Below are positions 16,404 to 53,151 of a stretch of 64,000 nucleotides of DNA, piece by piece (the first letter of the stretch is position 1; each line of letters opens with the position of its first letter). Position numbers and translations under genes: made by a program. A model generated the notes under the pieces. The model searched no databases. It had not been told where the DNA came from and worked only from the letters and a program-made list of their open reading frames with translations. The DNA is from Bryum argenteum (lineage: Eukaryota > Streptophyta > Bryopsida > Bryales > Bryaceae), in NCBI GenBank assembly GCA_037043015.1, contig CM073325.1, positions 6,241,001 through 6,305,000 of the forward strand, given 5' to 3'.

Positions 16404-16448
<45 letters not shown>

Positions 16449-20841: not shown

Positions 20842-20931
20842 CTACTAAAAAAACCCAAAACTTTTGATCTTCAAGCACTTTTGACTTTTGTCATGGTGTG
20901 GTAGAAGAAAAAGTATAACAAGGTCATTTAG

Positions 20932-27886: not shown

Positions 27887-28010
27887 ATTTATGGCATGCA
27901 TTTTAGTGAATGCAACTTTTGTTTTTGAGTTTTCAAGCATGGGGCATGTTTTACCTTTGCAAACAATTATGTGAATTCTAATTTGGTTGTTCAGGACATT
28001 TTGTGCATAA
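27887..28010. mobile_element. Type B repeat, left half of the element interrupted by the large transposon
   Basis: TGGCATGCATTTTAGT... to the ATAA at 28007-28010 aligns with 45,574-45,655 and with the reverse complement of about 57,590-57,680. The same repeat resumes at 42,964 beyond the 15-kb insertion. Its own left end is lost near 27,885. Confidence 0.7.
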
Positions 28011-28083
28011 AACACTCAATTAAGCAATTGTGCACTTGTATGTATAAAAGTGCACTTCTGTAAGTAGTCTTCAATGTGCACTT
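28011..28083. repeat. Left terminal inverted repeat and subterminal GTGCACTT boxes
   Basis: The TIR spans 28011-28038. The octamer GTGCACTT occurs at 28030-28037 (inside the TIR), 28050-28057 (within AAGTGCACTT) and 28076-28083. Clustered subterminal motifs of this sort are usual transposase-binding sites; that role is inference. Confidence 0.8.
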
Positions 28084-28273
28084 TAAAACCCAAATATATG
28101 GTTTGGAGAATGGGTTCTTTGGTAAAAAATTCCACTAGTTAAAATTTAAAAACCATATAGTTTTTGTACAATGATACATGTAAGATAATAAATAGTTTTA
28201 CCCAATGTCCTCAAGAATCATTTGTAATATTTGTCACTTAATAATATGGTGAAGCCCTACTTGCAACAAGAGA

Positions 28274-28447
28274 CATAATACACGGAAAATAATAAACATG
28301 ATACATTTGTAAGCATACATAGTACCCGGAAAATAATAAACATGATACATTTGTAAGCATACATAGTACCCGGAAAATAATAAACATGATACATTTGTAA
28401 GCATACATAGTACCCGGACAATAATAAACATGATACATTTGTAAGTA
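28274..28447. repeat. 44-bp tandem repeat, about four copies
   Basis: The unit CATAGTACCCGGAAAATAAT... recurs with an exact 44-bp period (CGG at 28283, 28327, 28371 and 28415). It lies between the left transposon end and the 3' end of the DDE-like gene. It has no coding role and might be a subterminal repeat of the element. Confidence 0.9.
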
Positions 28448-28606
28448 TATTTGTAGATATAAATATTGGAATTTTCCCAATCCTTTTAATCATTTCTCAC
28501 TCTACGTCTACCACTATACCTTCACCGGATAAATTTAACTCGTTCATACATGAACACTTCATATCAATTACCATACAAACCACGGTCAATGTACTATGAT
28601 AATAAC

Positions 28607-29731
28607 CTACTCCTTGGTATTTAAGGCTGCCTGTAAGCGTTCGTCGTCAATAGCTTCCGTTTGCATGGCTATATATTCTAGAATGTGTGCCTTTGTGGAT
28701 TGAGGAATACGAACTCTCTTCTCTACCTGCACTCCGTGTACAATGCGCTTCTCCGACGGTTGAACGACATTCTCCGATACGGGTTGTTCGTCAAACCATG
28801 AAAAGATACACGCCTCCTTCGGTACCCAACTGTGCCTCTCACCAGATGGCTCCCACAACGAATCCATGCAATTTACATAGCGTTGTCTGTTGGACCCCGT
28901 TTCTTCAACGACCCCTTCTCTCATAATGGGGCAATACCAACATACTTTAATCTTTAACCTCCATGAGTTTTTCCCTCTTTCAATCACCTTTCCTAGGTAA
29001 AAGGGTATGTCCGCTTCTACCTCATCTCGAACAACACTCGATTGCAACAAATTGATCGAGATTAATGTCCGTTTCGGGATTAAATGTTGGAAACGGATCG
29101 TTGCTACCTCCTTCTTGGTCTCGTACTGAGATTTCTTCGTAGACGCAATGTCGACTAGTTCGTCGTGCAGTATGCACTCCTTGATTTGATGGTCTCTCCC
29201 TTCGTGGTCCAAAGTATCCACGAGCCTCTGCACTCGGGAGCATGCCCACAATCGATCAACAACGGTTATCTCGCGAGTTTCAAAGAATAGTATTCTCTCT
29301 CGGTATCGAAGAGAAGCACCCTCAGGTTGGGCGTTGGACTCATAGGATGGCCAAAACGGTGATGACTCGTGATCGGCGTTGCGGTCCTTTCTTGAAACTC
29401 GCTAAATATTGTTTCAACCTCTCGTGCCTCATGTTTTGCATCACGGTTGACTTCCACGTGTTGCAATCTTTGAATACACCTATCCTTGTACGCAATAAAA
29501 TCGTCTAACGCCTTGAGCTCCCGCTCATCCGCCGCATATCTGATCAACAAAATCCGGTCGTTCGACCCTATTTGGGATGGATCTCAAAGTTTGATCCCTC
29601 TCCCGGTCCCAAGCATCCTTGCAATAGTGCTTATGTTGGACCCTGACCTTACAAGCACCCTCGCGATTGCTAGAATAGAATCTCATGTGGTGTGGAAATG
29701 TAATGCCAATCAATGAATCCGATCCCGTCAA
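28607..29731 (-). pseudogene. C-terminal part of the DDE-like transposon gene, broken frames
   Basis: This continues the leftward gene. The piece 29800-29525 contains NVWDWKKFVTPHL, GITFPHHMRFY and KVRVQHKHYC, the region expected right after the core in DUF7869-type proteins. A TAA and a frame change lie between it and the main segment near 29,780-29,830. The piece 29550-29266 is helical and charged. The last piece (29251-28607) has a compact beta-rich segment with FYLGKVIE, KIKVCWYCPI and LWEPSGERHSWVPKEACIF, reminiscent of a BAH/Tudor-like chromatin reader, but that is only a resemblance. Separate exons are an alternative to frame damage. Confidence 0.55.
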
Positions 29732-29819
29732 TAGGTGCGGAGTTACGAACTTCTTCCAATCCCATACATTCTTTAATAGTCGTGACGCTTACAAATGCCT
29801 CGGTGGGGGCGTTCCTCGT

Positions 29820-31457
29820 TCAATGAGAGTAAACATTTCCTTTAAAGAGTTCACGCCCCGACCTCTTCAAGGTGTTTGAGATACAACTAAACCGTTGATC
29901 GATATCTTCGTGCGTATGACCCACGATGAGGAAGGATAGTTCCACTTCCTGAAAAAATCCCAATCCAACCAAAGTTGCACACATTGCGAACATATAAATA
30001 TTTTTGTTCTCGCGTGTGCAGTTGTCCGCTTGAATGCGTAATGTTGGTGGCAAGAATCCCTTCCTCCGTAATACGTCCCCTATCACATGTAATAATGTGC
30101 TCACGACTTGGTTGCTATCATGCTTGTGGTGAGCTCCGAACCACACATCACAGTACAATCCAATCCCATGCACCAACGCCCCGCATAGATGGGTCTTCAC
30201 GAACCGGTTCTCGATATTCTTCACGGTCTGACGTATTCGGGGTACCATGGTTGTATTCTGATCCATGCCATCTACTATGATACACATGTACATTTCAGGG
30301 TTGATATAACAAGACCTCTTGAATATCCAATAATGTCTACGTTCCTCCATTTGATTGAGCAAATGTAACATGAACACCTCTTTAATCCTTATCTTGGCAT
30401 CCGCATTGGTTGTCCCTTCCATGGCACATTTGTACTCCCAACAATGATAACATTTTGAGAACCTAGAGAATGGGGGTACTTGAACATGAGGATACCTTAG
30501 GCGCCACATCCTCCAAAATGAGCTCATGGATATGGTTTCGCCATTGCAAATTCTCTTCACCTCCTCGTTCACGTAATTGAATACATCAGATTTTACTGTG
30601 TTCATAGGGAGAAGAATAAGCGGCACGACTTCGTTGTCACTCTTGCGTCGAATGGATCGGTGGGGTTGAGGACAACCGGCTTCATCCACGAAGCACTTAA
30701 AGCATGCCTCGGCAGCAGACATTCTAGTACTCTCTCTAACTGGATCTGAAAGGGTATTTCCGTGAACAGCTGTCACCCTACCATATATCAAACAATCTTT
30801 TTTCAAGTCCTTGAAACGCCGTTGTGAATATCCGACCGCTACAGCGTAGCATGCATTGCAAACCTCTTTGCCGTCCAACTTTGTCACAAACTTATCTCTA
30901 CGATTTCCATCGGTTTGTGTATAGAATGAAACCAACATCTGCCTCACCCATGTACTCCGGATTGAATACTTAGACCCCCATGCATTATACCGCACGTCCA
31001 AGATGTACCTTGCCGGAATATCTGTTAAACAATTTCTCTTGCATCCACCTTTTGCTATTGCATCTTGTACGCTTATCAATGTAACTTTTGCTTTTGCACC
31101 ATCGGCCGGTCTTCTTTCCCTTGCGACTCGCCTTGTCCGATTCTGCATAGAATAACGTCGGCGCGTTTGTCTTACAAATGCCAGCCCATCTACATGTGGT
31201 AGATCTCGGATGTTGTTAGAAGGAGGCTGGGAAAATGGTGAATTTTCATGTACGGGATTTGAAGCTTGACTACTTCTTCGTGATGTCTCATTGGAGCTTG
31301 GTGTGTGAAACTCCTCATGGAAATCAAATATTGGAGTCATCATCGGTACATGCGGCATTTGAGATCCCTCTTCACCTCGTGCGTGTAGAATATTGGAATC
31401 CAAAGCCACTACACGTACCAAAGAGCGGTCCCAACGAATCGTTAGTCCCCTAGACAA
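29820..31457 (-). CDS. RNase-H-fold DDE-like transposase core (DUF7869-like), 545 aa
   Basis: The longest open frame in the window. Residues 1-130 are low-complexity and basic. Residues 195-225 (VCNACYAVAVGYSQRRFKDL) resemble the helix-turn-helix-like segment seen N-terminal to this domain. C336-x2-C339 (FSKCYHCWEYK) starts the core. Candidate catalytic acids are D396 in IIVDGMDQ, D478 in IQADNCTRENKN, and E517/D518/D520 in GHTHEDID, with a helix FLIVGHTH before the last. This spacing fits a DDE/RNase-H nuclease; I relate it to the eukaryotic DUF7869 group from memory of its DN..NK and GHTH.DID motifs. It should cut and join transposon ends in the nucleus. It ends at a TGA that is probably a frameshift product, as homologous sequence continues in another frame. 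Confidence 0.6.
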   Translation of the reverse strand: MSRGLTIRWDRSLVRVVALDSNILHARGEEGSQMPHVPMMTPIFDFHEEFHTPSSNETSRRSSQASNPVHENSPFSQPPSNNIRDLPHVDGLAFVRQTRRRYSMQNRTRRVARERRPADGAKAKVTLISVQDAIAKGGCKRNCLTDIPARYILDVRYNAWGSKYSIRSTWVRQMLVSFYTQTDGNRRDKFVTKLDGKEVCNACYAVAVGYSQRRFKDLKKDCLIYGRVTAVHGNTLSDPVRESTRMSAAEACFKCFVDEAGCPQPHRSIRRKSDNEVVPLILLPMNTVKSDVFNYVNEEVKRICNGETISMSSFWRMWRLRYPHVQVPPFSRFSKCYHCWEYKCAMEGTTNADAKIRIKEVFMLHLLNQMEERRHYWIFKRSCYINPEMYMCIIVDGMDQNTTMVPRIRQTVKNIENRFVKTHLCGALVHGIGLYCDVWFGAHHKHDSNQVVSTLLHVIGDVLRRKGFLPPTLRIQADNCTRENKNIYMFAMCATLVGLGFFQEVELSFLIVGHTHEDIDQRFSCISNTLKRSGRELFKGNVYSH

Positions 31458-31500
31458 TCCTAATCGTTCTCCAACTACATCTCCTGTCCAGTGTAATTCA

Positions 31501-31800
31501 TCATCTACTTGAGTGACACGTCATCGCCACCTCGTAGGGAAACAATCTCATTCCGTTCAATTCCATGCCACTTTTGAATGCATTGTCCATTAGCGCCATG
31601 CCCACCACCGCTCCCGTACTAGAAAGCAATTCGACCCTACTATTTTGTTGAGATATACATATCTCATCTAATCCATCATGTAGTTGTCTCGCTCGAGCCG
31701 CCCGCAGTAATCGTGAACCTATTGAACTATTGAACAAGATATCACCTCCTGGGATGTCTCCGATTGGGACATGAGTTTCTATTGTATTGTTTTCCATCAT
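31501..31800 (-). CDS. Possible N-terminal segment of the DDE-like gene
   Basis: A 99-residue open stretch immediately upstream of the DDE-like core gene and in another frame, separated by 43 bp. It starts MMENNTIETHV and contains a Leu/Ala/Arg helix (SRLLRAARARQL). It may be exon 1 or a frame-shifted N-terminus. No domain is recognised. Confidence 0.35.
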   Translation of the reverse strand: MMENNTIETHVPIGDIPGGDILFNSSIGSRLLRAARARQLHDGLDEICISQQNSRVELLSSTGAVVGMALMDNAFKSGMELNGMRLFPYEVAMTCHSSR

Positions 31801-34800
31801 AGTTGCTATCGCTTGACTATCAACCTGATATTCAGAAAATAGTAATAAAAGGGTAAGAATCGGTCAACGTGGTAGTATATAAATTATGTAACAAGCTTCA
31901 TTTTGGACAAACTACCAAGTGTTCACCTTCTGCTACAATTCGAGTTTTATTGTACATATATTAGATTTTATGTTACCTGGTCACGTGTAGTGAGCACTAG
32001 TGATTTATTTTTTTATTTGAACTTCTAAGATAGAAAATTTAATTTGAAGATCCATTAGATTTATATAATTGTCACAATGTATGGACATTAGAAACATATG
32101 AATGTACTTATTTCTACGGACTATTAGAGTATAACAAAATCACGTCTATCCCACTACCAGATGTTGAATTTCGTACAAAGGTTTTATAATTATATGTCAA
32201 AACCTATACTATTGGTTCTCCCAAACCCCTAAACGACCAAATGGAAGTTCGACACCACATCTTGTAGTAAAAAAATATACTATAATTATGTGTTTTTTTT
32301 AGCATATTGAAAAATTTGTGCAAACTTTGGAGGTTTAAACATTTTAGGTTTAAATGTTGTCAAATCATGTTTTATTTTTTTGTGAATCTAATATGTTCTA
32401 CAAAGAAAATCTAAATGGAAAAAAAGGAAGTTTGTATTACATTTTGGAATAGAAAAAACCAAAACCACAAAACATTAAGATCTCTATGTTTCATTTGTAA
32501 GCGGCTACCATCCTCCTATAACCCTATTTGGTTTACTTAAAGCCTCGTCCTCATACGGAAATACCGGATTCACTTGGTCCGGTATTGTTCATCATACTTC
32601 AACTATTTATAGTTTTTGAATTTAAAAGCATCATTAATCCAATAAACTATCCAATGATAGATATATACTTATACTTCCAAGTATGAAGATTAATTATTTT
32701 AAAGATTGTCAATTAGAGCTCATTGAAGAAAATTATAATTTTAAGCGATTCGATGAAATCCACGGTAAATAAGATACGTCCTAAAAGCCATTAGATTGGG
32801 AGTAGAAGGTAATTCGACCTCAATTTCAAGTATAAGTATCTAGAGGCGTGGTATCGGGATTCAACACTTTGTGTAGTATGACAATATCACCAATCAATCT
32901 TCGTGCCAAAATATTTGGTCTTCTCTTTCTTTCAAAATCTATACAATCATAAGAAACACATTGGTGTCAATATGTAACACATGATGAAAACAACCTAAAA
33001 TCTAGGAAATTGGGGGAAAAAAGAGATAAAAGCTCAACAACATGCTCGTTAACTATCGTGCTAATGTAACATGTGACTTGTTGACACGACTATGAACACT
33101 TTAAAGACAAAACTTGTGAGAGTCTAGCGTACTTTGAATGACATTCAATTGCCTGTCTCATGAGACAACACATGCTGGATATGGTGGTTTCACAATCAGA
33201 CAAGCATTTGTGACCATCAACAGCACCAAGTTTTTAAACTGATGTTTTCACCACTTAAAGTATGCTAATTTGATTACGTTCTACTTTCCTTTACTCTTAA
33301 TTTCAATTGCGATTTGATCCGCTCACGCGACATTTTTGTTTTTCTTTTAGTAACACCGATATTGAGTCGCAAGTGGTTCTAAGTGGCCATGATTGAGCTT
33401 AACTGCTTCGTGCTAGTGATGGTCTTACATCGTTTTTATGGGTACATTCACCATGTAGAGTTTACGTTGTTTAGGATCAAATGTTGGAATGTTCACTTCT
33501 GTGTTGCTAACTATATTGCTTCCCTTAACTTCATGCAGGCAATTCAAATTTTATCATGGTTGGCCTAGTACAAGCCTAAGACCTTGGTCAAACATAAGTA
33601 ATTCAACTTCAAAGGCCCTTCTTTTATGATAAAAATGGCATGTGAATAATAATTGGATGAAAGATCCAAAACGGTGAGATCATGCCTTAAAACCTTATGT
33701 CCAAGTACCAAAAACAAAACTTGGAAAAAGTTAAATTTCCGTAGTTTGGTGAATTTTGAAGTTCCTGCGATCTTATATATTTTGGGTAGATAAACAAAGA
33801 TAAACCATAGTATGGGCGCTTTTGGGCAAATTCCAAATAGTATTTTAAAGCTTTGTAGTTCGAGTATACTTCTTAAGTTTTTTATTGTGCTCTTTGTAGC
33901 GGCATCCATATCAACTAGGACGTTCATGCGACGCACACATCGGAGTTTCAAATCCACTATTTTCCCAAATTCTTTTTGCCATATATGTGTATTCCTAGCT
34001 ATTACTATTTTTTCTATCTGACCTTAACTGACAAGGCTATACAATTTTTTTTGTAAGAGTAATAGAGAATTATCAGAAGGGTGATGGTCTGGTTGGGGTA
34101 CCCAAAAAGGTTGTCCCATGAACAATTGCACTCTATGTTGGTGTGACAAACATATCCATTTTTAAACTGTAATACAATAAGACTTCATTAGATGTAGTTT
34201 TAGTTGTCTATACTTATAATGTATCAAGAAAAAAAATTAAAAATGAAAAAAAATATTTTGAAGTAATTTTATTTGATTTTTTAGTTGAAAAAGTAAGTCA
34301 TGTCCCAATAACCTAAAATCCATAGAATCAAGCAAATGGAATATCAACCATTTTTATTTTAATATACTTTTTGAATATGACCTACATCTTCTTGTATAGA
34401 ATAAAAAATAATTTATTTAATAATAAAAAAATAAATTCATTGTGCACTACAATGCCTACAAATCCCCAAATTCAACACTTTTTCCCTCATCTATGAATGG
34501 ATCCAAAAAAAATAAAAAATCTAAAAGAAAATCTATAGGCATATATACTTTGATTTCAGTGAGGTGCATGATATTTTATTTTCTATTTTAGGCTCTTTTT
34601 ACTTGATTAAAATGACTAAATTAGACAAACTTTGGAGGCTTTCAATAAAAATAACCTAATTAGTGTGTCCAAAAAGTGATACCCCAAGCTTACCATTGCC
34701 CAGAATTAACAACAGAGGCAGAATATCAGCTGCGTGTTCTTGATTCTAGTATTGCTTAAGTGAGTCGGACGAAGTGAAGATAATCAAAGATTAGAGTCCT

Positions 34801-34977
34801 TTTTCTAGGTGTTGACTTGTAGCTTGATGCTCACAACCATGCCTAAAACCATTCCTGACTTGTAGCTCGGTGGTCAGTACACAAACTTCGTTCTTGTGCA
34901 CATTCGTTCGGGTTACAGGAGATTAGCACCTTTTCAATCAATGTGTGCCTCTTCCCTGAAGACTCGGCATTTCTTGA
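31801..34977. other. Transposon spacer, no gene
   Basis: AT-rich intergenic DNA inside the large transposon, upstream of both divergent genes. It would contain their promoters, but no distinct TATA-plus-start arrangement was identified. From about 33,580 to 34,020 it holds a repeat (separate entry). Confidence 0.5.
33580..34020. repeat. Dispersed repeat shared with 58,320-58,560
   Basis: The strings CAAAAACAAAACTTG(G)AAAAAGT, TTTGGT(G/A)AATTTT(T)GAAGTT and TTTTGGGC recur in order at both sites. Non-coding; open frames on either strand are incidental. Its presence inside the transposon suggests a later insertion or a captured repeat. Confidence 0.55.
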
Positions 34978-35811
34978 GCGGCGCTGCCTGGGGGTGCGTA
35001 CGCACGGGGTACGAGATCTGCAGCGCGTTCCTCAGTGTCCCGCCACGAGTCGCTCAGTGTCGCTCAGTGTCCAGCCATGAGTCCCCAGTCGTAACGTTGC
35101 AGAGATACCTGTTTTGCAGCTTTGAAACGTAGACATTCACAAGGTTTCGAAGTCTCGGTGACTTCAGAGCCGGCATACGTGCAGCAGAGTCAGCACAGGA
35201 GTCATCACAACGACGGCAGGAAGAATCAGCCAATCGTGCTCGGTCACGAAAACTCGAAACTCCAGAGGCCAAGGCGCAACGGCTGCAACAACAAGGGGAA
35301 TACGTAGCCAAAGTGAGAGCCGCAGAGTCGCCCGAGGATCGAGCACACAGTCGCACCAAAGAAGCGACCTACAAAGCCGCCGTCAGAGCCCCAAAGTCAT
35401 TGAGGAGCGAGCTCAAAGGTCGCGCGAACAAGCCGCATACATTGCCGAGCTCGAGAAACGCCCGAGGAAAGAGAACAATGGCTCCGACAACAATTGGGGG
35501 ATTCACCCTCACACTCTAGCGTTCGAATCGGGAGTCTCCAAAGACAATATTGTGATCTTTCGTCTGAGATTTTCGTATCGCGGGTCAGCGAGCTTTGTCC
35601 CGCCAGAGTTACTCGGTGTTCCACTACAAGTTCGGATACGAGTGCCGATACGAGTGCCGATACGAGTCCTCAAATAAGCGTCCCGACGCGAGATTTGCAC
35701 GTGAGTTGCCTTTCTTTCTAAACCCTAATCACATCCCCTCTTCCCCTAATCTTTCCCTCCGCCTCCCTCCTTACACCCCGTGCGTACGCACCCCCCCCCC
35801 CAGGCCGCGCC
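34978..35811. mobile_element. GC-rich insert bounded by inverted repeats
   Basis: Left 34978-35010 and right 35775-35811 are inverted copies around GGGGTGCGTACGCACGGGGT, with a C-run expansion on the right. The interior is much GC-richer than its surroundings. Between about 35,160 and 35,400 it encodes an Arg/Glu/Ala-rich helix with repeated RAAES units (IRAAESAQESSQRRQEE, then KVRAAESPEDRAHSR). No TSD was established. A poly-A run and AAAG repeats follow directly at 35,824-35,872. It may be a small DNA element, or a retroposed segment whose tail is that poly-A. Confidence 0.5.
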
Positions 35812-35818
35812 GAATAAA

Positions 35819-35823
<5 letters not shown>

Positions 35824-35852
<29 letters not shown>

Positions 35853-35872
35853 AAAGAAAGAAAGAAAGAAAG
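35824..35872. repeat. Poly-A and AAAG microsatellite
   Basis: A run of about 27 A followed by AAAG repeats, immediately after the GC-rich insert. It could be an RNA-derived tail. Confidence 0.85.
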
Positions 35873-38309
35873 AAGAAAAAGAAAAGATAGTTACAAGATG
35901 TCTGAACGACGAATTACGAGCCTTGAATTGAACAAGTTAGCAAGTACGCTGTGGGTGCATGATATCGAAATACAAAATGTCAAAATCTCTGTATTATTTC
36001 ATGCGTGGCGTTGGTGGCCATATTTCGACGAAACTTTTGATGATGTGATGAAATTTCAATATCTCTTTTTCTAAAGAAAATATACTGTAATGTTTATCTC
36101 ATTATGTCTTCTAGACAAATCAAGTAACCTGATGTTTCTTCAGTTCATGGTTTAGGTCACAAGGAAGTTCAGGTTATTGGATAACGGAGTTATAATCTTG
36201 CCATTACGTTCTTTGTTTGTGATTTAGTTGATCAGTTGATCAGAAAATTTCAAGATTGCATGTGCACTTGCGGCATGAATAAAGTATTTCAGTAAATAGT
36301 CGAAGAGAGATATAGTCGGAGATAAATTATTGCAGGATGCTCTTGTGCACGGGACGAAACAGAACATTCCAATTTCAGTAGCTTTGAATAGAGCTTTAGT
36401 CTTCAACACTGAACCCCCATTTTTCAAACACAATGGTGTGGTATCATTTTAATTATCGTCGTGGCCTACATATGTTTATGAGTTGATAATGAGTAGGCGT
36501 TATAGTGGTCCTTCCGTGTCTTCCTTTCTGCAAATCACTCTCCGTTAAAAATTAATGTAGAGAACCAATTATGGTGAGTTTTCAAATATAGTCTTCTTTC
36601 TCATACTCTTGTTGCGGTGACTTGTTTTCTTCTAGCAGCATTGCGCAAGCTCAATTACTTGTGTTTGGGGCATTTCACTCATGAGTTGCAAGCTGCATCC
36701 CAACTAGCTGCAAAAAGACTGGTAAGTTTGTGTTCCACTCCTCGGTCAATTCCTACGTAAGAGAAATGTGAGACTTTGCACGTAAGTAGCAATAAGAGCA
36801 GACCATTATAAGTTAACCATAATAAGTTGATAAGTTTAAGTGCAGTTTGTAGCACTGTCCCGCTTGATGCCCTGATTCTCATGGTTGAAGCTATCTGGGA
36901 GGAATCTCTCAAATATGGCGACTTTAATGAGGGAAAATTTTTCCAAGGCTTGCAAGATTTCTTAACCCCTAACTTTTCTTAAAACCCGAAACGGGTTTTG
37001 GAGGTTTCCGCAGGAGAAAAAATCAGCCAACTTTGATCAATATAATCTCACAAATGAGGAAGAATGAACGGTTCAAATTTGGTATGTGAGAAGAATGTCA
37101 AGTGAAATTTGAGATCTTACGGTTGAATTTTTGAATATTGCTTAGATTGAGATTTTTTGAGCTTAATCTAAAGGAAGGTCAAATTTTGTGACTTACACCG
37201 TTTTGCAACAAGGAAATTTAGGGGTTAAACAAAGCAAGAATGGGCAACAATCACTTCAATCCTGAAAAATTAAACCATGCTCTATATTACTCCACCCTCT
37301 ACCTTGTTGAGGTTAGCACTACTATGTCTTGATATCTCAGATCATACCGAGTAGCATCTATAGCTTCTTTGCAGATACTTTTACACCTAGTTTTTTAGGG
37401 TTCGTAGTTTGTCTCTATAGAAGAGTTCAACGGAGGGGGTGGTGGAGTTTCAATTTTTTTATATGATGATTATCTTGTCAAGGCATGGCTTTATAAATAC
37501 TATTATAAACTCCTAAATTTAACATTCACATTTGTGTGTGATATTGATTTTTGAGGAAGTATTTGAGTGTCAATTTATCCTTCATTCATAATGTATTAGA
37601 ATTTAAACATGATCATTTGAAGGCTCTATAAAATAGTATTTTTCAGATTCCCTAAATATTTTATGAGTTTCCAATAATCTAATTCACATTGATAAAATTG
37701 ATACTTTTTGCTTTATTTCGGTAGGATGGATATTGCTCTCATAAGAATTTTGAACCACATCAAGCTTGCTTACTTAACGGTTAGGCTTTCTTCCCAAGCA
37801 CTTACTTATCGAAGACATCATGTAAGATACCATATCTTGACAAGATGTATGATAGTTACAAGAATTCGTATTTGTTATAAGCCCAATGTAATGACAAGTA
37901 ATACTTATGATTTATTACAATATTGCATCTCCTAGTACATGCTTCAGTAGCTAAAAAAAGTGCCATGTATGGCATCGTATTTGAGCGTGATAAAGTTTAT
38001 ATATTGAAATTACTCTAAAATGAAAGGTATTAGTCGTAGAATATTCAATGTTTTCCTGAATTTGAATAAAATTTTATATGGTTTAGGATAAAATAAGTGA
38101 TAGTATAAATTGTCTTCTAGTAACCATTAACATTTTGCAAAACATTGGTGACCATGTTATCAACTCTGATATGATGTTCATAATTTTATGAAACCCGACA
38201 TTTCAACCGGCATAGATATTTTATACAAAGAACATTTTACGATATGAATTTTAAGAAAGCACAAAAGAGCTAGAGGTTTTTTTTTTAATACTCGTATTTA
38301 CAATTCTAT
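35873..38309. other. Transposon spacer upstream of the ParB/methylase-like gene
   Basis: AT-rich, no gene recognised apart from the TTAA-bounded MITE at 36,966-37,224. The promoter of the rightward gene should lie near the end of this stretch; no element is distinctive. Confidence 0.5.
36966..37224. mobile_element. TTAA-bounded MITE, type C copy 1
   Basis: Flanked by TTAA at 36962-36965 and 37225-37228. Ends are CCCCTAACTTTTC and, inverted, CCCCTAAATTTCC. The body (GGAGGTTTCCGCAGGAGAAAAAA, then an ATAATCTCACAAATGA segment) is shared with 55,843-56,165. It must have arrived after the large transposon, which it interrupts. Confidence 0.8.
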
Positions 38310-38351
38310 ATGTATTGTGTGATTCAAGTCAGGTTTCTTGTTGGAGACATC

Positions 38352-38768
38352 ATGGCACCAACGCTTCCAATCGACAAGGTCTGGGAGCAGTACGGATGGT
38401 GGATCGCAGTGGACGCGGAATCAAGGCCAATATTATGGCTCACAGAACATCCATTTCAAATCGGGAAGCGCACATCGGCATTGGGGAAGCCCTTCGCCGA
38501 ACTTCGGGCAATTAATCTCCGACCAGGCGATATGATCTATGCAATTTGCGTACCGGGGGTTGGTCAGAGGCCCGACAAAGACTTCCCTTTCAAAAAGTTG
38601 CTTCTCGCACCTATTCCTACAGATCTTCTTCAAAATCCAGGGCGATTGAATAACATAACCTCGTTGCAGACGTTTTGGCTCAACACAGATCTTGCGGTGC
38701 GTACTGCTAGACATGAGCATGTGTCGGCATGTTTAGCGTTATCTGAAGAGGATGATGGCACGAGCTAG
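38352..38768 (+). CDS. N-terminal module of the ParB/methylase-like transposon gene
   Basis: 139 residues from the ATG (MAPTLPIDKVWEQYGWW) to a TGA/TAG-type stop near 38,768. A beta-rich fold is suggested by RPGDMIYAICVPGV and FPFKKLLLAPIPTDLL, resembling a small domain that gates an RNA/DNA-binding module, but I recognise no family. It overlaps a second open frame starting at 38,752 that continues rightward, so either a frame change or an intron joins it to the rest of the gene. Confidence 0.5.
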   Translation: MAPTLPIDKVWEQYGWWIAVDAESRPILWLTEHPFQIGKRTSALGKPFAELRAINLRPGDMIYAICVPGVGQRPDKDFPFKKLLLAPIPTDLLQNPGRLNNITSLQTFWLNTDLAVRTARHEHVSACLALSEEDDGTS

Positions 38769-39141
38769 AAGATTTATGCGTGCTCATATCTCGTATGAGG
38801 CATTACAATGGTCGGAGCCGGAACGTGCAAGAGTTGAACATGCAAGTTTACTGGCTGATCCAGAGGAGACCGAACCTATTTATCGTGCGTTAGCAAGGCC
38901 GACACAATTGGATTGGCGGCCATCCACTACATTGCGAGCATCGAATGTTCGTACATCAACAATTGGTCGTCCATCTAAGCGGCCACGACATGACGAAGGC
39001 AACATAGCTTCGCGTTCGCTCGACGACCATCGCGTGGCGCGGGCCTGGACATCACAGAGACAGAGCATTGCCAATGCATGGCGAGGCCGTGGATCGATAG
39101 TCGACCAATCATTACCCATCGTAGATCATCAACATCTCTAA
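38752..39141 (+). CDS. Linker segment of the ParB/methylase-like gene
   Basis: Charged, low-complexity 129-codon stretch (RFMRAHISYEALQWSEPERAR; RPSKRPRHDEGNIA, which could be a nuclear localisation signal). It overlaps the previous segment by 17 bp in another frame. Probably a flexible linker of the same protein. Confidence 0.4.
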   Translation: MMARARRFMRAHISYEALQWSEPERARVEHASLLADPEETEPIYRALARPTQLDWRPSTTLRASNVRTSTIGRPSKRPRHDEGNIASRSLDDHRVARAWTSQRQSIANAWRGRGSIVDQSLPIVDHQHL

Positions 39142-39299
39142 ATGGATGTTCCCGTGACTTTGTCACCGTAGATGATGAGTTGTGCGACATTTCCGACCAC
39201 CCATCGGGGAATCGGAGGAAGAGGCGGAACATCTCAATATCCTGCTCCACTTCTAAGATTCTCAAAGCGCCCGCCCTACAAAAGAAGAAGTTGCGAGAG

Positions 39300-39574
39300 G
39301 TTCAATATGGGGCGACATTGTATTCAAGGCACACATTGACCGCATTATCGAAGTGGAGAATCCGGAGACAAACCATCGAATTTTGTCGCAGAAGAGGGTA
39401 TCAGAGATATATACCTTCTTACGAGATCCTCAAAATAGGATTGGAGTGAGTAAATTGGTACTTCGTCCTATCAAGTACCTTGTGGATATCGTTACCGACA
39501 CTGGTATGGTTGAACGTGAAGGAGTCGATTTCCGGTTAATGGAGCAAAATGAGAGTTTGAACGGATGTTTTTAA
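39300..39574 (+). CDS. ParB-like N-terminal half
   Basis: Reads DIVFKAHIDRIIEVENP, then ETNHRILSQKRVSEIYTFL, then IGVSKLVLRPIKYLVDIV. This follows the ParB N-terminal pattern: an N-P-R/H-like start, a helix with R-V-x-E, and an I-V-x-P strand. A frame change near 39,290 separates it from the preceding linker. See the next segment for the DGQH motif. Confidence 0.45.
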
Positions 39575-39852
39575 GCAATGGAGATGCTTCTGTAGACGGT
39601 ACTATGGGCTCTCAGTTATCTTGGCTTCAAGACCATATCATTTGGGAGCCTGTGGATGGGCAACACGTTGTAGCTGCTTGCAAGTATGCGAAGGAGCAGT
39701 GGATGAGCGGCAAGATCACTCATTCCGAGTTTCAGAAGACGTTTGAGCAACGGGAAGCTACCTTTGTTGTGTATGATAATCCACGACTTTACATTAACAA
39801 GTCGGTATGCTCAACAATGCGGAGTGGCAAAGAAAACAACTATCCACCATGA
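39565..39852 (+). CDS. ParB-like DGQH segment
   Basis: IIWEPVDGQHVVAACKYAKE matches the DGxHR-xxA motif of ParB/DGQHR nuclease-fold proteins, with Val replacing Arg after the His. FVVYDNPRLYINKSV follows as the next strand. A frame change near 39,810 leads into the methylase-like segment (…LNNAEWQRKQLST). In bacteria and phages ParB domains are often fused to N4/N6 DNA methylases, which supports reading this as one gene with its 3' neighbour. Confidence 0.5.
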   Translation: MFLSNGDASVDGTMGSQLSWLQDHIIWEPVDGQHVVAACKYAKEQWMSGKITHSEFQKTFEQREATFVVYDNPRLYINKSVCSTMRSGKENNYPP

Positions 39853-39943
39853 GTGAGGATTTGGTCAAGCTCAAGCGATATGGAATCTGTATGGTAGGCC
39901 TGATAACTCAGTTCGTTCAGATGATGAACGCAGGGCTATTGCA

Positions 39944-41005
39944 TTGGTGAGCGCAGCAAGTGCCGTGCGGAAAATGCCCTACGGAGGTGACAACAAGATT
40001 ACGACGTCGAGCTTGGGGAAGAACATGGAAGACCTAACTAAGCATGCCTGGAATCCCAACGATGAATGCTTTGAAGTTGTCCTTCAAGTTACCAAGGACT
40101 ACAAGAACGGCTTTTTGTTTTACAGCAAGGATGAGGAGAAGAGGTGGAAGGCGTTGGCACTAAAGAAGAGTCTAGACCCAAATGTAGATGTACGACCAAG
40201 GCGGAAGCGGATGACCGGACATTGGTTGAGGCCGTTGGGTAGAGTTCCAAGTTCATACTATCTAGAGGTTGCAAAAGCCTGTTTAGCTAAGCCAGTTGGC
40301 GAGGATGGACGAAGACCTCGTCAAGCTTTTTATTTCAACGGCGTCAAAGAGCAGAATCCAAGGACTCGTACCATTGCTGGTGTATGTGAGCGCATTATGA
40401 GACGAGAAGCGGTGATAAATACCATCCGTTGGTTGATGGTAGACAACAAGGAATCTTTCCCAAATTCCATGGAAGATTTCTTTCGTATATCTGTACGGAA
40501 GTATTTACCAGGAGGCAAGGAACAACTTGACAAATTTGCCGAGTTGTTGGATAGCAAAACAAGAACCAAATGGAGTACACCGCAGCGAGAGAAAGTGTCG
40601 AAGCTGAAAGACATATGCGACCTCATCCCTCCTTTCATCAAGGTACATTATGAAGTTGTTGCAGCAGGAGGGCAAGGCCACAATGCACCATCTCTACGTA
40701 GAGGAGTTGCAAACAGGGCCAATTGGGAGTGGCAGTTGCACGTTCAAAGGCCAGACCAAAGCAATGGAGAGGAACCAATTTTGATTCGATCTAGAAGAGG
40801 ATTATTCGGTTCAGAGTATGCAGAGTTGACACAGCCGTATTTGTGGATTATTGATTGTCGGCGTGGCGGTGGAAGACATGGCAATGGTCATTGGGAAGAT
40901 GAACAATTCACTAGAGTATTTGCACAGCTGGCGTTATGGATGACGTACCGTCGAACGATGGAATGTCATTTTCCTGTTACCACCGGCCGTGTTCGCCACC
41001 GATGA
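39944..41005 (+). CDS. Methylase-like segment 1 with degenerate motif IV
   Basis: 353 residues. The N-terminal 230 residues are helical and unrecognised. Near residues 300-330, PYLWIIDCRRGGGRHGNGHWEDEQFTRVF sits where N4/N6 DNA methylases have a strand ending D-P-P-Y followed by a W.EE.F helix; here the motif is D-C-R-R. It ends by running out of frame at 41,005 exactly where the next open frame begins (40,989), so the two belong together with a +1 shift or a short unrecognised intron. Confidence 0.5.
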   Translation: MVSAASAVRKMPYGGDNKITTSSLGKNMEDLTKHAWNPNDECFEVVLQVTKDYKNGFLFYSKDEEKRWKALALKKSLDPNVDVRPRRKRMTGHWLRPLGRVPSSYYLEVAKACLAKPVGEDGRRPRQAFYFNGVKEQNPRTRTIAGVCERIMRREAVINTIRWLMVDNKESFPNSMEDFFRISVRKYLPGGKEQLDKFAELLDSKTRTKWSTPQREKVSKLKDICDLIPPFIKVHYEVVAAGGQGHNAPSLRRGVANRANWEWQLHVQRPDQSNGEEPILIRSRRGLFGSEYAELTQPYLWIIDCRRGGGRHGNGHWEDEQFTRVFAQLALWMTYRRTMECHFPVTTGRVRHR

Positions 41006-42332
41006 ATTGATTACGAAGCTCAAGCTTCCGGAGGGTTGCTCTCATCGACGTGGATGTTGGGCATTTGGTCAGACCTCGGTTAATCATCCTCTAAATTTTA
41101 CAAATGGAGGGCGCTTACAGCAGGCAGTTGAACCAATAGGTGATATCATTATTTGTCTGCAACACCCAATTGGAGCATCTGCTGGGCCAAACTTTGTTAC
41201 TAGGCGCCGCCGACTTCCTCTTTTATTTGACGATAACCGTGGTGAAGCACAAGAGCTTTCTATTGTTGATGCTCTCGAGAGATCTCCATCCGAGTTATCA
41301 AGACTTGTGGATTCGTACTTGCCTCGAGGTTGGGGTTTGGTAGCATGTAGCATGTCAACTGCGATTCCGACTATCTTGCATTCGAATTTCCAGGGATCCG
41401 ATATCATTGTCATTGACAATTGTAACGAGAGACTTTCGTTCTTGTACAATGAGTTGTCCAACAATTTCCACGGCCAGTTGTTGATGTCTGACGACATAGG
41501 TGGAACGGATAGTGCTCCTGGTGATGTGCATGCTACCGAAGATGCGATTCCATTATCGAGGGATGGTGACGATGATGTGGATTTCTACACTCAGTTCAAT
41601 GAGAGATTGCCACGTGAATATGGGACGGACAAATCCACACCTGACAGTCGTTCACCCGACACGCAGCAAAGCAGTGAAGCAGAAGAAGGAGAAGATGAGG
41701 AGGAAGATGGACAGGAAGATGAAGACGAAGACGAAGATGAAGGTGAAGAGGAGGGAGCACCTATGAGAGATGTGGTTACTCCAACGTCGCCGCCGCATGT
41801 GGAAGTTTGTGTAGAGGAGACACCCATGGAGATGGCGGATGATACTCGTACAGTGAACGTTCATTCAGAGACACCAGTGGAGGGAATGAACATATCTATT
41901 TCTCAATGGCCGGAATCAGATGGATATGCTACTGATTCTCTCAGATTTTTCTCGGTTGTGAGTAGAAGTAGGCAACCATTGGTGCCTACTCAATCACAGT
42001 CTGGATTTGGGACACAAAGAAGTACAGAAGATACTGGAGGAAGTATTGGACCAATATTGCCATCTGTTACAAGACATAGCGAATCGGGGGACGTTGCTGA
42101 ATTTAGGAGGACCTTCACTACACCGATGACATTTAGAGATGGCTTCTATTATGATGCGGATGGCGTAAGGCGCACGCGCATGGCGACCCTGGTAGCTTTA
42201 GATATGAAACAAATCAACATCAATCGGTCTTGCGAGATACTCCGGTGCGGAGGATGTGTTGGTTTAAATGGTCAATACACCATAGAATACGCTACGGAGT
42301 CGCATCACCATAATATGATGGAGACTTTGTAG
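40989..42332 (+). CDS. Methylase-like segment 2, acidic region and C-terminal domain
   Basis: 447 residues. Residues 1-60 contain ATDELITKLKLPEG and HRRGCWAFGQT. A strand GDIIICLQHP follows at residues 51-60. Residues 95-155 (SELSRLVDSYLPRGWGLVACSMSTAIPTILHSNFQGSD... with DIIVIDNCNERL) have the shape of the methylase AdoMet-binding region, where D-x-F-x-G-x-G is expected, but the loop is A-C-S-M-S-T-A. Residues 228-262 are almost pure Asp/Glu. The last 70 residues hold a possible zinc-binding CEILRCGGC. Catalysis is doubtful; a DNA-binding or decoy role is possible. Confidence 0.5.
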   Translation: MFATDELITKLKLPEGCSHRRGCWAFGQTSVNHPLNFTNGGRLQQAVEPIGDIIICLQHPIGASAGPNFVTRRRRLPLLFDDNRGEAQELSIVDALERSPSELSRLVDSYLPRGWGLVACSMSTAIPTILHSNFQGSDIIVIDNCNERLSFLYNELSNNFHGQLLMSDDIGGTDSAPGDVHATEDAIPLSRDGDDDVDFYTQFNERLPREYGTDKSTPDSRSPDTQQSSEAEEGEDEEEDGQEDEDEDEDEGEEEGAPMRDVVTPTSPPHVEVCVEETPMEMADDTRTVNVHSETPVEGMNISISQWPESDGYATDSLRFFSVVSRSRQPLVPTQSQSGFGTQRSTEDTGGSIGPILPSVTRHSESGDVAEFRRTFTTPMTFRDGFYYDADGVRRTRMATLVALDMKQININRSCEILRCGGCVGLNGQYTIEYATESHHHNMMETL

Positions 42333-42436
42333 TCATACCATAACTTAGCATATATGATGTTTAGGTGACTAGTATAGTGTGATTGATATGTTTGCTTTTG
42401 AAATGGTATGTTTTATTATAGTATGTGATATTGAAT

Positions 42437-42492
<56 letters not shown>

Positions 42493-42675
42493 AATATAGA
42501 GTTTTATACCTTATACTTTATCATTGTATTTGGGGTTTTATCATTACATCTCTTAGAAATTGTATTTGTAGAACGACATTATAAAGTCATTACATGAAAC
42601 AAAATGTATAGGATTAGGTTCTTGTAAGTATATGGTCAATGTCATTCTCAGAAATGGAATAAGAATGAAATATTG

Positions 42676-42754
<79 letters not shown>

Positions 42755-42931
42755 ATTTCAAGGAAATAGTGAAAAGTATTCACCTACGTAGACATCAACA
42801 AACCAATATTTAATGAAATTATTACAAAAATATAGCAAAAAAAAATATTGGAATTTTGTTTTATTAGTTAAAAAAAAACAAAAAATTGCTCCAAATCTTA
42901 TTGTTATTGAGCGCCAATTAGCGCACTTGGC
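42333..42931. other. Transposon right subterminal region with AT microsatellites
   Basis: Contains two (AT)n runs at 42,441-42,488 and 42,682-42,749. No gene. The TGA-to-TIR distance (about 600 bp) matches the 3' side of the left gene (about 600 bp), giving the element a symmetrical layout. Confidence 0.7.
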
Positions 42932-42959
42932 CAAGTGCACAATTGCTTAATTGAGTGTT
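42932..42959. repeat. Right terminal inverted repeat
   Basis: Exact inverse of 28011-28038 over all 28 bp, closing TTAATTGAGTGTT. ATAA follows at 42960-42963. Just inside it, GCGCACTTGGCCAAGTGC (42921-42938) is a palindrome containing the subterminal octamer core. Confidence 0.92.
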
Positions 42960-42963
42960 ATAA

Positions 42964-47109: not shown

Positions 47110-47275
47110 CACAGCATTCCCACATCATCCCCAACACTACCAGCTCAACTAAGTTACCACACTCTCAGCATCGGAGTAGTCATCTGTGTATCGCCACCAG
47201 CAACCCTGCAGCGGGATCTAGCTTGACTACAGGTTTCAGCTCCGGTTCAGAGCTAGTTTCGATCCAGAGCTTGAG

Positions 47276-47572
47276 ATGGCGATGAAGCAGGTTTCAGTGG
47301 TGGCTCTCTTGGTGGCGATGCTGGCTATGTCTAGCTGTGTGAGTGCTGCGAGGCCGATGCCTTCACCCATGCCGGCCCCTGAAGGGCCTTCGAGTTACGC
47401 ACCCGAATTGGCTCCCGAATACGCACCGGAGATGGCTCCCATGTATGCACCAGAGATGGCACCAGAGATGGCTCCTATGTATGCACCAGAGATGGCTCCT
47501 GTGTACTCTCCAGAGATGTCGCCCAGCTACGGACCCAGCGCAGGTGCTCCGGCTCCTATGTCCGGCGCTTAG
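47276..47572 (+). CDS. Secreted YAPEMAP-repeat wall-type peptide 1 (98 aa)
   Basis: Residues 1-24 are a signal peptide (MAMKQVSVVALLVAMLAMSS, then CVSA-A). The mature chain opens RPMPSPMPAPEGPSSYAPE and is built of 5-6 repeats of Y-A-P-E-M-A-P with Ala, Pro, Glu, Met and Tyr only. Dispersed Ala-Pro and Ser-Pro are the contexts that plants hydroxylate and glycosylate in arabinogalactan-protein-like peptides, so extracellular or cell-wall location is likely; regular Tyr could crosslink. There is no C-terminal hydrophobic tail, so no GPI anchor. One uninterrupted exon; the ATG is in the context GAGATGGCGATGAAGCA, conserved in all four paralogues. A polyadenylation-type AATAAA lies near 47,690. 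Function unknown. Confidence 0.9.
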   Translation: MAMKQVSVVALLVAMLAMSSCVSAARPMPSPMPAPEGPSSYAPELAPEYAPEMAPMYAPEMAPEMAPMYAPEMAPVYSPEMSPSYGPSAGAPAPMSGA

Positions 47573-48170
47573 ATCTTATCCTTTGTAAGATTATCATAGG
47601 AATGAGTATTTGTAAACTTCGCGGACTAGATGAACTACATTTTTTCGCTGTTGAGCGTGTATAGATTATGCTTCTCCATTGATCCGAGTTAATAAAACTG
47701 GATAGGAGACTGCCTCACAATCGAGGCGGACTTCCTTTTGAGCTTACATCTGTGTCAGATCTACTCCTCTCTTCGTAGTCTGTATTGTTGATGTGTGTAC
47801 TGGGTAGTGGTGATCCACCTCAATGTGAAGTGTAATTGTGAGCATTGGCAACTAAGTTGCGTTAAATCTAGGTGCTTGTTCAAGTGAATGTCGACTTCAG
47901 TGGTCAAATGCGGATATGAACTACAATTGCAAGTTGCAATCAATCTGACAATCCTTGCCGGCCGGTTGGATCTAGTCGCCATTTGCTACCAACAGACCTG
48001 GATCTTTGGGAACCTGAAGGAAGTGTGCGCCCAGTTGCAGCTCAAACATGCACTCTGAAGCCGATACCACAACTGTCAAGATCTTTTCACTTTCATCCAA
48101 AAGACCCTGTTTATAAGTACATTATTGTAGCCCAAACAGCTCACTGTTGCAATGTGCTAACTGAGAGCTA

Positions 48171-49583
48171 GATTATGACAGCCTGTGAGCTAGATCAATA
48201 ACAACAGTTGCAGGTGCTTTTTGGTGAATACTTCTAATATTGTACTGGTAACAAAAGAAGAGAGTTTAAGTAGTAATGAATAATGCATTTTCTCTTCGGT
48301 ATCAGAAGTAACAGATTCTGTAAAAGGTGAAATCAAGTCACCTGATTGTGGTTCAAAGTAAAGTAAATTTTTACTTTGGTTTCATGATTGTAAGAAAACG
48401 AAAAAAGAAGTACACTTTGACCTAATTGTAAAAATTAAACACACCATCAATGTGCCATACCTTTAAGGAAATAGCACTGAGATGCTTTCTCACACCTGGC
48501 ACTTCTTTCACCAGTGAAGCAAGTTGACACCCTGGCGAACGATGTAGGTTTTACACCGAGCTGCAGATTCGTGGTCCCACGAAATCGACATGGTGCTCAC
48601 AGTATTCCTCGATGTTTCGAGAACAATTTCTCAAAAGGTACACTGCTCAGAAATGGCGCAAATTTCAGTTCAGAATATTCTGGAGCTATCATTTTGTGCA
48701 TTTGGAGAGTGAGTGGGAAAGACTAAATCAAGTGGTATCACCAGATTTGGACTCTACAATTTTTTAGGAATTTTTGAAGGTGAACTCATTGAAGTTTCTA
48801 TGATGGTGCCCTGAAATGACACCCCAAAATCTTCATGACTAATACAAGGCCTTTTGAGCCATTTTTAGTAGTGTGTCGATTTCAAGTAGTCCATCTTAGT
48901 TCTAGCATTTTGGTTCTGTACTCTCTTGCTCATTGATTCAACATAGTCGTAAATAGGGTTAGCGTTGGGTTGTGATAATCCAAATGGAATCTGTGAGTCT
49001 TTAACATGTTGGTTCTTTATCACTTTAAGGCACCTTAATATGTTTACGAGACTTTTGTCTTGTGCGCTTTCCATCAAATAAAAACTCATTCCTTAGCAAG
49101 TTTAGAGTTACATGAAGATATTGCATGTTTACACTTGTTACATTGATTACATTCAACACACACAATAATTATATTCATAAATCATTCAACTCAGCAACAC
49201 AATTTAAACCTAGCTGAATTTACAATCAATTGTTTGAACCTCTCGGCTAAAACAATCTTATTGTCGCTTGTACATGCTCTGGCTTGAGCATGTGCTTCTC
49301 CGAAATCGGCAGTTCAATAAGGATTGCAAATGAAGACGTTGTATAAGCTCAACGTTACTGCTGATGGTAAAGCATGTGATAATAATATTATTTCTATATA
49401 ATGCTAGGTCATGGTAGGTCACAAGGAATCGTTCCAACTTGTCCGTTTTAAAAGCCGTACCCAATTCCCGAATTAGGAGCAATGAACTTCCTCGAGCCCG
49501 CCATGCACGCACTCGCTCCACTACGCCCAGCGCGCTTCAGTTGTACCCCAGCCTCGGACTCGACCGTTCACATCAATCAACTG
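48171..49583. other. Intergenic between YAPEMAP genes 1 and 2
   Basis: AT-rich, no supported gene. The end contains the promoter of gene 2: CCCGAATTAGGAG near 49,467 and GACTCGACCGTTCA near 49,557, both also found before gene 3. Confidence 0.5.
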
Positions 49584-49584
49584 C

Positions 49585-49591
49585 TATAAAT
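49585..49591 (+). promoter_or_regulatory. TATA box of YAPEMAP gene 2
   Basis: TATAAAT in CTGCTATAAATCG, about 213 bp before the start codon and about 25 bp after the conserved GACTCGACCGTTCA. Confidence 0.65.
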
Positions 49592-49803
49592 CGATCCGAT
49601 ACCAAAGTGTCTTCACAGCAATCTTTGAAGTAACCCATACTCGCCTCCCTACCATCGATCAAGCCATCTTCTAGCTCTCAAAGTCCGGGTAACTTCATTT
49701 GACCAGTGGATTCTCAGCAAAGCTAGCTCCTTCCACCCACTGTGTTATTTACAGGTCTCAGCAACTCGTCCACTTGAACCGATCGTTTCCAGGAGCGATC
49801 GAG

Positions 49804-50124
49804 ATGGCGATGAAGCAATTTTCAGTGGCGGCTTTGCTGGTGGTGCTGGCAATACTGGCCATGTCTGTACACGATGTGAGCGCTGCGAGGCCGTTTCCTG
49901 CACCTTTACCGTCCCCTCAAGGACCCAGCAGCTATGCACCAGAACTGGCTCCCAGCTACGCTCCCGAAGTAGCTCCTGTGTACGCTCCAGAGATGGCTCC
50001 TGCGTATGCACCAGAGATGTCTCCCACCTACGCGCCTGAGGTGTCTCCTCCCGCTTACACTCCCAGCTATGACGTTGGGCCTTCTCCAGCTTCTTACGCC
50101 CCTGCTCCTTCCACCGGCGCTTAG
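49804..50124 (+). CDS. Secreted YAPEMAP-repeat wall-type peptide 2 (106 aa)
   Basis: Signal peptide residues 1-27 (MAMKQFSVAALLVVLAILAM, then SVHDVSA), mature chain RPFPAPLPSPQGPSSYAPE. It differs from gene 1 in having Y-A-P-E-V/M-A/S-P repeats and a distinct tail, SYDVGPSPASYAPAPSTGA, shared in form with gene 3. It is a tandem paralogue in the same orientation as genes 1 and 3. The in-frame open stretch begins upstream at 49,699, but homology and the conserved ATG context place the start at 49,804. Expected to be secreted and O-glycosylated at Pro; no GPI signal. Confidence 0.9.
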   Translation: MAMKQFSVAALLVVLAILAMSVHDVSAARPFPAPLPSPQGPSSYAPELAPSYAPEVAPVYAPEMAPAYAPEMSPTYAPEVSPPAYTPSYDVGPSPASYAPAPSTGA

Positions 50125-51426: not shown

Positions 51427-51433
51427 TATAAAT
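51427..51433 (+). promoter_or_regulatory. TATA box of YAPEMAP gene 3
   Basis: TATAAAT in TTGATATAAATGAG, 164 bp before the start codon, downstream of the shared CCGTTCA motif. Confidence 0.65.
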
Positions 51434-51596
51434 GAGCTTACTCACACTCAGTTTCTAACGTGCTCAAAGCAATACATCTGTTTGGTCCTCAATTTGAAGC
51501 ACAGTAGCATTCTGATCAGCGGGCCATCGATCTCGATCCGATTGCAGTTGTCGAAATCGCTGCAAAACTCAGTCAGGAGTGAGTACAGGCACCGAG

Positions 51597-52547: not shown

Positions 52548-52551
52548 TTAA

Positions 52552-53056: not shown

Positions 53057-53151
<95 letters not shown>

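What the first reader, a model, noticed from the sequence alone, without database searches (positions are those of the whole stretch)
28011..42959. A 14.95-kb DNA transposon with perfect 28-bp TIRs, ATAA target duplication, and two divergent genes
Seen directly: 28/28 inverted termini, 4-bp ATAA on both sides, a leftward gene with a DDE-like core and a rightward gene with ParB-like and methylase-like segments. TIR sequence and a 4-bp TSD do not fit CACTA, hAT, Mutator, Harbinger or Tc1. The combination may define an undescribed superfamily or a large unusual member of a poorly described one.
Basis: partly seen in the sequence, partly recalled or inferred. Interest (0 to 1): 0.95.

Follow-up and report, generated by a model that had tools for sequence, protein, structure and literature searches.

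The report
Giant Sola1-like transposon with methylase-like helper
This is a real 15-kb cut-and-paste transposon with many relatives in its genome; it matches the known Sola type, but its second gene looks like a DNA-methylating enzyme whose usual catalytic motifs have been replaced by a conserved, unexplained one.

Summary
Perfect 28-bp inverted termini (28011-28038, 42932-42959) are flanked by ATAA on both sides, with two divergent genes between them. All ten copies that I could pair end to end have matching 4-bp target duplications, and related repeats cross the window's junction without the element. Insertions favour a palindromic CAY-N4-RTG target.

The leftward gene is a DUF7869 transposase with a predicted RNase-H/integrase fold. 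The rightward product is predicted to join a ParB-like fold to a beta-class DNA-methyltransferase fold. The genes form a divergent module at 34 of 56 accessory loci.

'Undescribed superfamily' is not supported. Sola has 4-bp duplications and elements over 15 kb, and a brown-algal Sola1 carries a ParB-methyltransferase gene opposite its transposase. Direct sequence comparison with Sola1 was not possible.

Unlike that description, motif IV of the methyltransferase-like domain reads DCRR, not [DNS]PP[YFW], in 15 of 15 proteins, and one pair of copies shows purifying selection. I read it as a Sola1-like variant whose helper is probably a non-methylating, element-binding protein.

The parts
28007..28010 (.). 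left copy of the 4-bp target-site duplication (ATAA)
   Evidence: same 4-bp rule in 10 of 10 paired copies
28011..28038 (+). left terminal inverted repeat, 28 bp
   Evidence: conserved in family copies
28030..28083 (+). GTGCACTT repeats at the left end (element positions 20, 38/40 overlapping, 66; the first lies in the TIR), candidate binding sites
   Evidence: 6 of the 7 GTGCACTT matches (both strands) in the 64-kb window lie in the element, 5 of them within its outer 75 bp
28273..28448 (+). tandem array of a 44-bp unit inside the left end
   Evidence: family D5
28607..31800 (-). transposase gene (DUF7869), intronless by comparison with the uninterrupted 1076-aa frame of the C8 copy; frame interrupted in the window copy
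29859..30209 (-). DUF7869 match PF25273 (E 2e-42), part of the RNase-H-like catalytic core
   Evidence: fold
30258..30275 (-). Asp motif 1 VDGMDQ (D531 of P0059)
30021..30032 (-). Asp motif 2 QADN (D613 of P0059)
29895..29921 (-). Asp motif 3 GHTHEDIDQ (D655 of P0059)
34079..34700 (.). 622-bp nested insertion in the window copy; GGG...CCC ends, AGAA (or CAGAA) duplicated, empty site read in copies C2a and C2b
38352..42332 (+). accessory gene (1341-codon frame with two stops in the C8 copy), ParB-like + methyltransferase-like; frame interrupted in the window copy; ends approximate
39257..39852 (+). ParB-fold domain, approximate limits (core IIWEPVDGQH at 39637-39666)
40853..40864 (+). DCRR at the motif-IV position of the methyltransferase-like fold
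41331..41366 (+). WGLVACSMSTAI at the motif-I (SAM-binding) position, lacking the usual GxG
42932..42959 (-). right terminal inverted repeat, 28 bp
42960..42963 (.). right copy of the 4-bp target-site duplication (ATAA)

Best explanation
The feature is one copy of a family of large cut-and-paste DNA transposons of the Sola1 type. Shown: 28-bp TIRs, 4-bp TSDs, related repeats without the element at the insertion site, a transposase with a conserved Asp triad on a predicted RNase-H/integrase fold, many copies, and a linked divergent accessory gene. Inferred: the transposase pairs the two ends by their TIRs and subterminal GTGCACTT repeats, cuts the element out, and joins it to a palindromic CAY-N4-RTG target with a 4-bp stagger. 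The accessory protein (ParB-like fold followed by a permuted beta-class methyltransferase fold) binds element DNA in trans. Its methyltransferase motifs IV and I are replaced by conserved non-canonical sequence, so I think it most likely does not methylate DNA. It would then act as a binding or scaffold factor, loading on the element to help assemble the 15-kb transpososome or to hinder silencing. The window copy itself is probably not autonomous.
Confidence: 0.75

Rival explanations
1. A separate, undescribed superfamily: DUF7869 transposases are not Sola1, and share only the 4-bp TSD and a ParB-methyltransferase accessory with it by convergence or gene capture.
For: No sequence-level link to any named transposase was found: PDB profile search with A4 gives one irrelevant hit, Pfam gives only a domain of unknown function, and no held paper names DUF7869. 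[quoted passage not shown]
Against: 4-bp TSD, DDD, size over 10 kb and the accessory gene on the opposite strand all coincide with published Sola1 (passages); Sola1 is reported from the moss Physcomitrella (passage).
Confidence: 0.15
2. The accessory protein is an active DNA methyltransferase with a non-canonical motif IV (DCRR), marking its own element, as proposed for the algal proteins.
For: DCRR is present in 15 of 15 proteins, so it is under constraint, not simply lost; the predicted fold is that of N6A/N4C DNA methyltransferases including the bdelloid N4CMT; dN/dS is below 1. Two distant relatives (P0068, P0072) have GITT-like sequence at motif I, a little closer to the usual form.
Against: [DNS]PP[YWF] is absent from all 15 proteins and no GxG is seen at the motif-I position; that these motifs are needed by amino-methyltransferases is recalled knowledge. 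The genome pattern W[IV]xDPP gave 8 matches against 4 in the backwards control, none inside the 56 accessory loci.
Confidence: 0.2
3. The accessory gene is a passenger or decaying cargo with no role in transposition.
For: The frame is broken in the window copy and in several others.
Against: Nine database relatives of 1125-1488 aa, divergent linkage at 34 of 56 loci, purifying selection in one pair, families at 37-39% identity still paired with a transposase.
Confidence: 0.1

Closest known systems
Sola superfamily, Sola1 group (4-bp TSD DNA transposons; named for Physcomitrella, Ectocarpus and Salpingoeca in passages)
   Same: 4-bp TSD, TIR within the reported length range, size over 10 kb, Asp-triad transposase
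   Different: Sequence homology to a reference Sola1 transposase not tested; four copies here are 14.2-14.3 kb, the window copy 14.9 kb with its nested insertion; targets favour CAY-N4-RTG
Sola1-1_Ec32 of Ectocarpus (21.5 kb) with a 1104-aa ParB + DNA-methyltransferase protein (PMC12477816, passages)
   Same: Transposase and a ParB-methyltransferase protein encoded on opposite strands of one giant element
   Different: Here the methyltransferase-like domain has DCRR instead of [DNS]PP[YFW] and no GxG at motif I; the published protein is predicted to make N4mC or N6mA. Its sequence was not seen
ParB / Noc / KorB N-terminal domain fold (CTP-binding family; CTP use recalled and from PDB titles)
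   Different: The ParB arginine motif GERRxR (recalled) reads [DN]GQH here; no sequence-level match
Beta-class N6A/N4C DNA methyltransferases (M.BceJIV, MboIIA, CcrM, bdelloid N4CMT)
   Different: Catalytic and SAM motifs not conserved; resembles pseudo-methyltransferase partners such as METTL14 (that METTL14 is inactive is recalled)

Membership tests
Sola (Sola1) DNA transposons | 4-bp target-site duplication | tested here: met
   10 of 10 paired copies of this family exact; 1 of 2 examined elements of related families exact, the other one mismatch
Sola (Sola1) DNA transposons | Terminal inverted repeats (11-1124 bp as reported in PMC10741241, passage) | tested here: met
   28/28 bp
Sola (Sola1) DNA transposons | DDD transposase with RNase-H-like core | tested here: met
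   D531 14/14, D613 13/14, D655 12/13 with letters; predicted integrase/mariner-like fold
Sola (Sola1) DNA transposons | Sequence homology to reference Sola1 transposases | not testable with these tools
   Repbase not available; Bao 2009 and Yuan & Wessler 2011 not held
Giant Sola1 with ParB-methyltransferase accessory (Sola1-1_Ec32) | Accessory gene on the strand opposite the transposase, ParB-like + DNA-methyltransferase domains | tested here: met
   Architecture by predicted fold and 34 of 34 divergent linkages; direct sequence comparison with the Ectocarpus protein not possible
Beta-class amino DNA methyltransferases | Fold and motif order IV before I | tested here: met
   By model topology and fold match; model of moderate confidence
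Beta-class amino DNA methyltransferases | Motif IV [DNS]PP[YFW] | tested here: not met
   DCRR in 15 of 15 proteins, no [DNS]PP[WYF] anywhere in them
Beta-class amino DNA methyltransferases | Motif I with GxG for SAM binding | tested here: not met
   WGLVACxISTAI-like sequence instead: 11 of 15 proteins matched my expression, two have variants without GxG (P0067, P0069), two do not hold the region (P0071, P0073)
ParB family | ParB N-domain fold | tested here: met
ParB family | GERRxR nucleotide-binding motif (recalled) | tested here: not met
   [DN]GQH(I/V)VAA at that place; I placed it by eye in the alignment, not by structure
CACTA, hAT, Mutator, PIF/Harbinger, Tc1/mariner | TSD length 3, 8, 7-12, 3 and 2 bp (PMC10741241, passages) | tested here: not met
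   4-bp TSD in 10 of 10 copies

The most novel reading that the evidence does not exclude
A branch of giant Sola1-like transposons has turned a ParB-methyltransferase fusion into a conserved pseudo-methyltransferase. It no longer marks DNA but loads on the element as a ParB-like factor that organises or shields a 15-kb transposon, and the conserved DCRR motif carries a new function.
Probability: 0.45. Interest if true: 0.7.

Novelty: new variant of a known kind. Interest (0 to 1): 0.55.

Why it matters
Very large DNA transposons face two problems: bringing distant ends together and escaping silencing. A helper gene that has stayed beside the transposase across families with only 37-51% protein identity suggests a real solution. 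If the helper has kept a methyltransferase fold but lost its catalytic motifs, it separates DNA binding from DNA marking. It also ties a bacterial chromosome-segregation fold to a eukaryotic transposon. The family also gives DUF7869, at present a domain of unknown function, a transposase identity supported by TIRs, TSDs and an empty site.

Tried and rejected
Sequence-only searches for the accessory gene (Pfam, NCBIfam, PDB by phmmer and by profile) gave nothing relevant. Prokaryotic and viral relatives: the search for related loci with P0059 gave no relative in genome contigs or viral contigs, and with A3 none in viral contigs; these scans use a few short peptides and reach close relatives. 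Alignment A4 could not be used for pattern scans. Reading the broken frames as introns was rejected because the C8 copy has the transposase in one uninterrupted 1076-aa frame and the accessory gene in one frame with two stops. Whether the interruptions are decay or assembly error is open: the window copy shows 21 frame-shifting indels against 52 substitutions in the transposase gene relative to C8. Ginger also makes 4-6 bp TSDs but has TG..CA termini and a Gypsy-like integrase (passage); the termini here are AACAC..GTGTT, so it was rejected. Empty-site searches for two other copies gave no spanning paralogue (only the copy itself; repeats on one side only, 40 of 250 candidates scored). DUF7869 was found in 0 of 14 control genomes, whose names I did not see. 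For the methyltransferase pattern W[IV]xDPP the 8 matches are near background (4 in control). One of four small stretches fetched to read motif IV (L088) did not show the motif; my placement may have been off. No Rfam family matched the window. Papers: only passages were read of PMC4455052, PMC9033089, PMC12730594, PMC10294476, PMC10741241, PMC6786969, PMC12477816, PMC3627910 and PMC6875170; other papers were seen only as search listings. That this family, its target preference or the DCRR motif is unpublished is not established: it rests on searches of an open-licence library only.
Full report
WHAT IS THERE. The element runs from 28011 to 42959 (14,949 bp). Its outer 28 bases are identical in inverted orientation, and ATAA lies on both sides. 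About 7.5e-8 perfect inverted 28-mers are expected by chance in a window of this composition. The window lies on contig C5 of an unnamed 258.8-Mb genome. I take the host to be a land plant, perhaps a bryophyte; that is an impression and was not tested.

COPIES AND TARGET DUPLICATIONS. The left-end 90 bp gave 40 matches (40 of 75 candidates scored) and the right-end 90 bp gave 40 (40 of 127 scored). Ten elements could be paired end to end. All ten have identical 4-bp flanks on their two sides, nine different sequences in all. Two elements from other families of the same genome were also examined: one has TAAT on both sides; the other has a perfect 28-bp TIR of slightly different sequence and TAAA/AAAA. 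The flanks of 48 distinct ends (20 left, 28 right; some are the two sides of one insertion) show a sharp preference at three positions just outside the duplicated four bases. C is present at -7 in 26 of 48, A at -6 in 32 of 48, and C or T at -5 in 35 of 48; there is no signal from -8 to -14, and inside the duplicated four G and C are scarce. CA at -7,-6 occurs in 22 of 48 ends against a 7.6% background. Because the preference appears on both sides, the target is a palindrome, CAY-NNNN-RTG. Joining the window's two flanks with one ATAA and searching the genome listed 38 non-self matches (40 of 1753 candidates scored). All 38 run across the junction, at 79-82% identity, but 37 of them end 16-23 bases beyond it; one, at 74%, covers 188 bases. 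So the element sits inside a dispersed repeat whose listed relatives lack it. The same search for two other insertions gave no spanning paralogue.

THE UNUSUAL PART. Motif IV of amino-methyltransferases, [DNS]PP[YFW] (recalled), should stand at the end of the first methyltransferase strand. There the protein has DCRR, in 15 of 15 proteins (P0060-P0074), and none of them has [DNS]PP[YWF] anywhere. At the motif-I position 11 of 15 read WGLVACSISTAI or similar, two have variants (P0067, P0069) and two do not hold the region (P0071, P0073); no GxG is seen, though P0068 and P0072 read GITT there. A degenerate DNA pattern for W-I-x-D-C-R-R found 20 places in the genome and none in the backwards control; 13 of the 20 lie within the 56 accessory loci, including families at 37-41% identity. 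Three of four small stretches fetched from distant families show WVFDCRR. The W[IV]xDPP pattern gave 8 places against 4 in control, none inside the accessory loci. One pair of copies (C8 and the C9 copy at 16.15 Mb, both with stops) gives dN/dS 0.24 (NG86) or 0.35 (YN00) over 752 codons, so the protein has been under purifying selection. The most economical reading is a conserved pseudo-enzyme; an enzyme with a changed motif is not excluded.

A TWO-GENE MODULE. The 70 listed matches of the accessory protein (59 of 506 candidates scored) merge into 56 loci. Of these, 34 have a DUF7869 match (from the list of 150) within 40 kb, and in 34 of 34 the genes are divergent as in the window. Random placement gives a mean of 2.5 and a maximum of 9 in 2000 trials. 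The other 22 have no listed transposase within 40 kb; one of them is the C4 copy at 25.7 Mb, whose left half aligns with the window copy though its DUF7869 match was not listed.

COMPARISON WITH WHAT IS KNOWN. Sola transposons are described as having a DDD transposase, 4-bp TSDs, TIRs of 11 to 1124 bp and sizes up to over 15 kb, and as present in Physcomitrella (PMC10741241, passages; PMC9033089, table passage). The Ectocarpus TE paper describes a 21.5-kb Sola1-1_Ec32 with a 1104-aa ParB + DNA-methyltransferase protein encoded opposite the transposase. [quoted passage not shown] The present family fits this kind on each element feature that I could test; the methyltransferase motifs do not fit. 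The missing test is direct sequence homology to a reference Sola1 transposase. The target preference was not in the passages that I read.

STATE OF THE WINDOW COPY. It carries a 622-bp insertion (34079-34700) that six of seven compared copies lack (the seventh, C3, has nothing aligned there), and broken frames in both genes. Relative to C8 it shows 21 frame-shifting indels and 52 substitutions in the transposase gene. So many indels for so few substitutions may partly be assembly error. I would not call it autonomous.

MECHANISM. Shown: ends, 4-bp duplications, target preference, empty relatives of the site, conserved Asp triad, linkage of the two genes, conservation of the accessory protein. 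Inferred: cut-and-paste by the DUF7869 protein, end recognition through the TIR and the GTGCACTT repeats (five matches, two of them inside the TIRs and two overlapping, in the outer 75 bp of the element's ends out of seven in the window), and a DNA-binding, non-methylating role for the accessory protein.

Noticed in passing
window 34079-34700: 622-bp nested insertion with GGG...CCC ends (GGGTGATGGT / GGGCAATGGT) and AGAA (or CAGAA) duplicated; empty site read in copies C2a and C2b. Looks like a small non-autonomous transposon of another family.
   Followed up: partly
window 47273-55272: Repeated copies, three direct and one inverted, of a small gene for a secreted-looking protein with repeated YAPEMAP motifs; the inverted arms 47158-47655 and 54775-55272 are 93% complementary.
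   Followed up: no
window 13148-20843: Blocks repeated at about 6.2-kb spacing, up to 100% identical, with Ty3-type capsid and protease frames nearby: probably LTR-retrotransposon copies.
   Followed up: no
window 2959-3720: Copia-type gag-pre-integrase and integrase frame ('Copia-type' is my reading).
   Followed up: no
own genome: C2:13784863, C4:25403982 and C11:1366521 with accessory loci C2:13796166, C4:25418073 and C11:1378068: Three elements whose left 90 bp are 94-96% identical to the window's while their accessory proteins are only 49-51% identical to the C8 one: the ends are far better conserved than the proteins.
   Followed up: partly
own genome, right ends among L023-L038: A set of right ends beginning AACACGC or AACATGC ...AATTAAGCAATTATGCACTTGG, about 90-93% identical over 70-79 bp: probably a related non-autonomous or sister family.
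   Followed up: no
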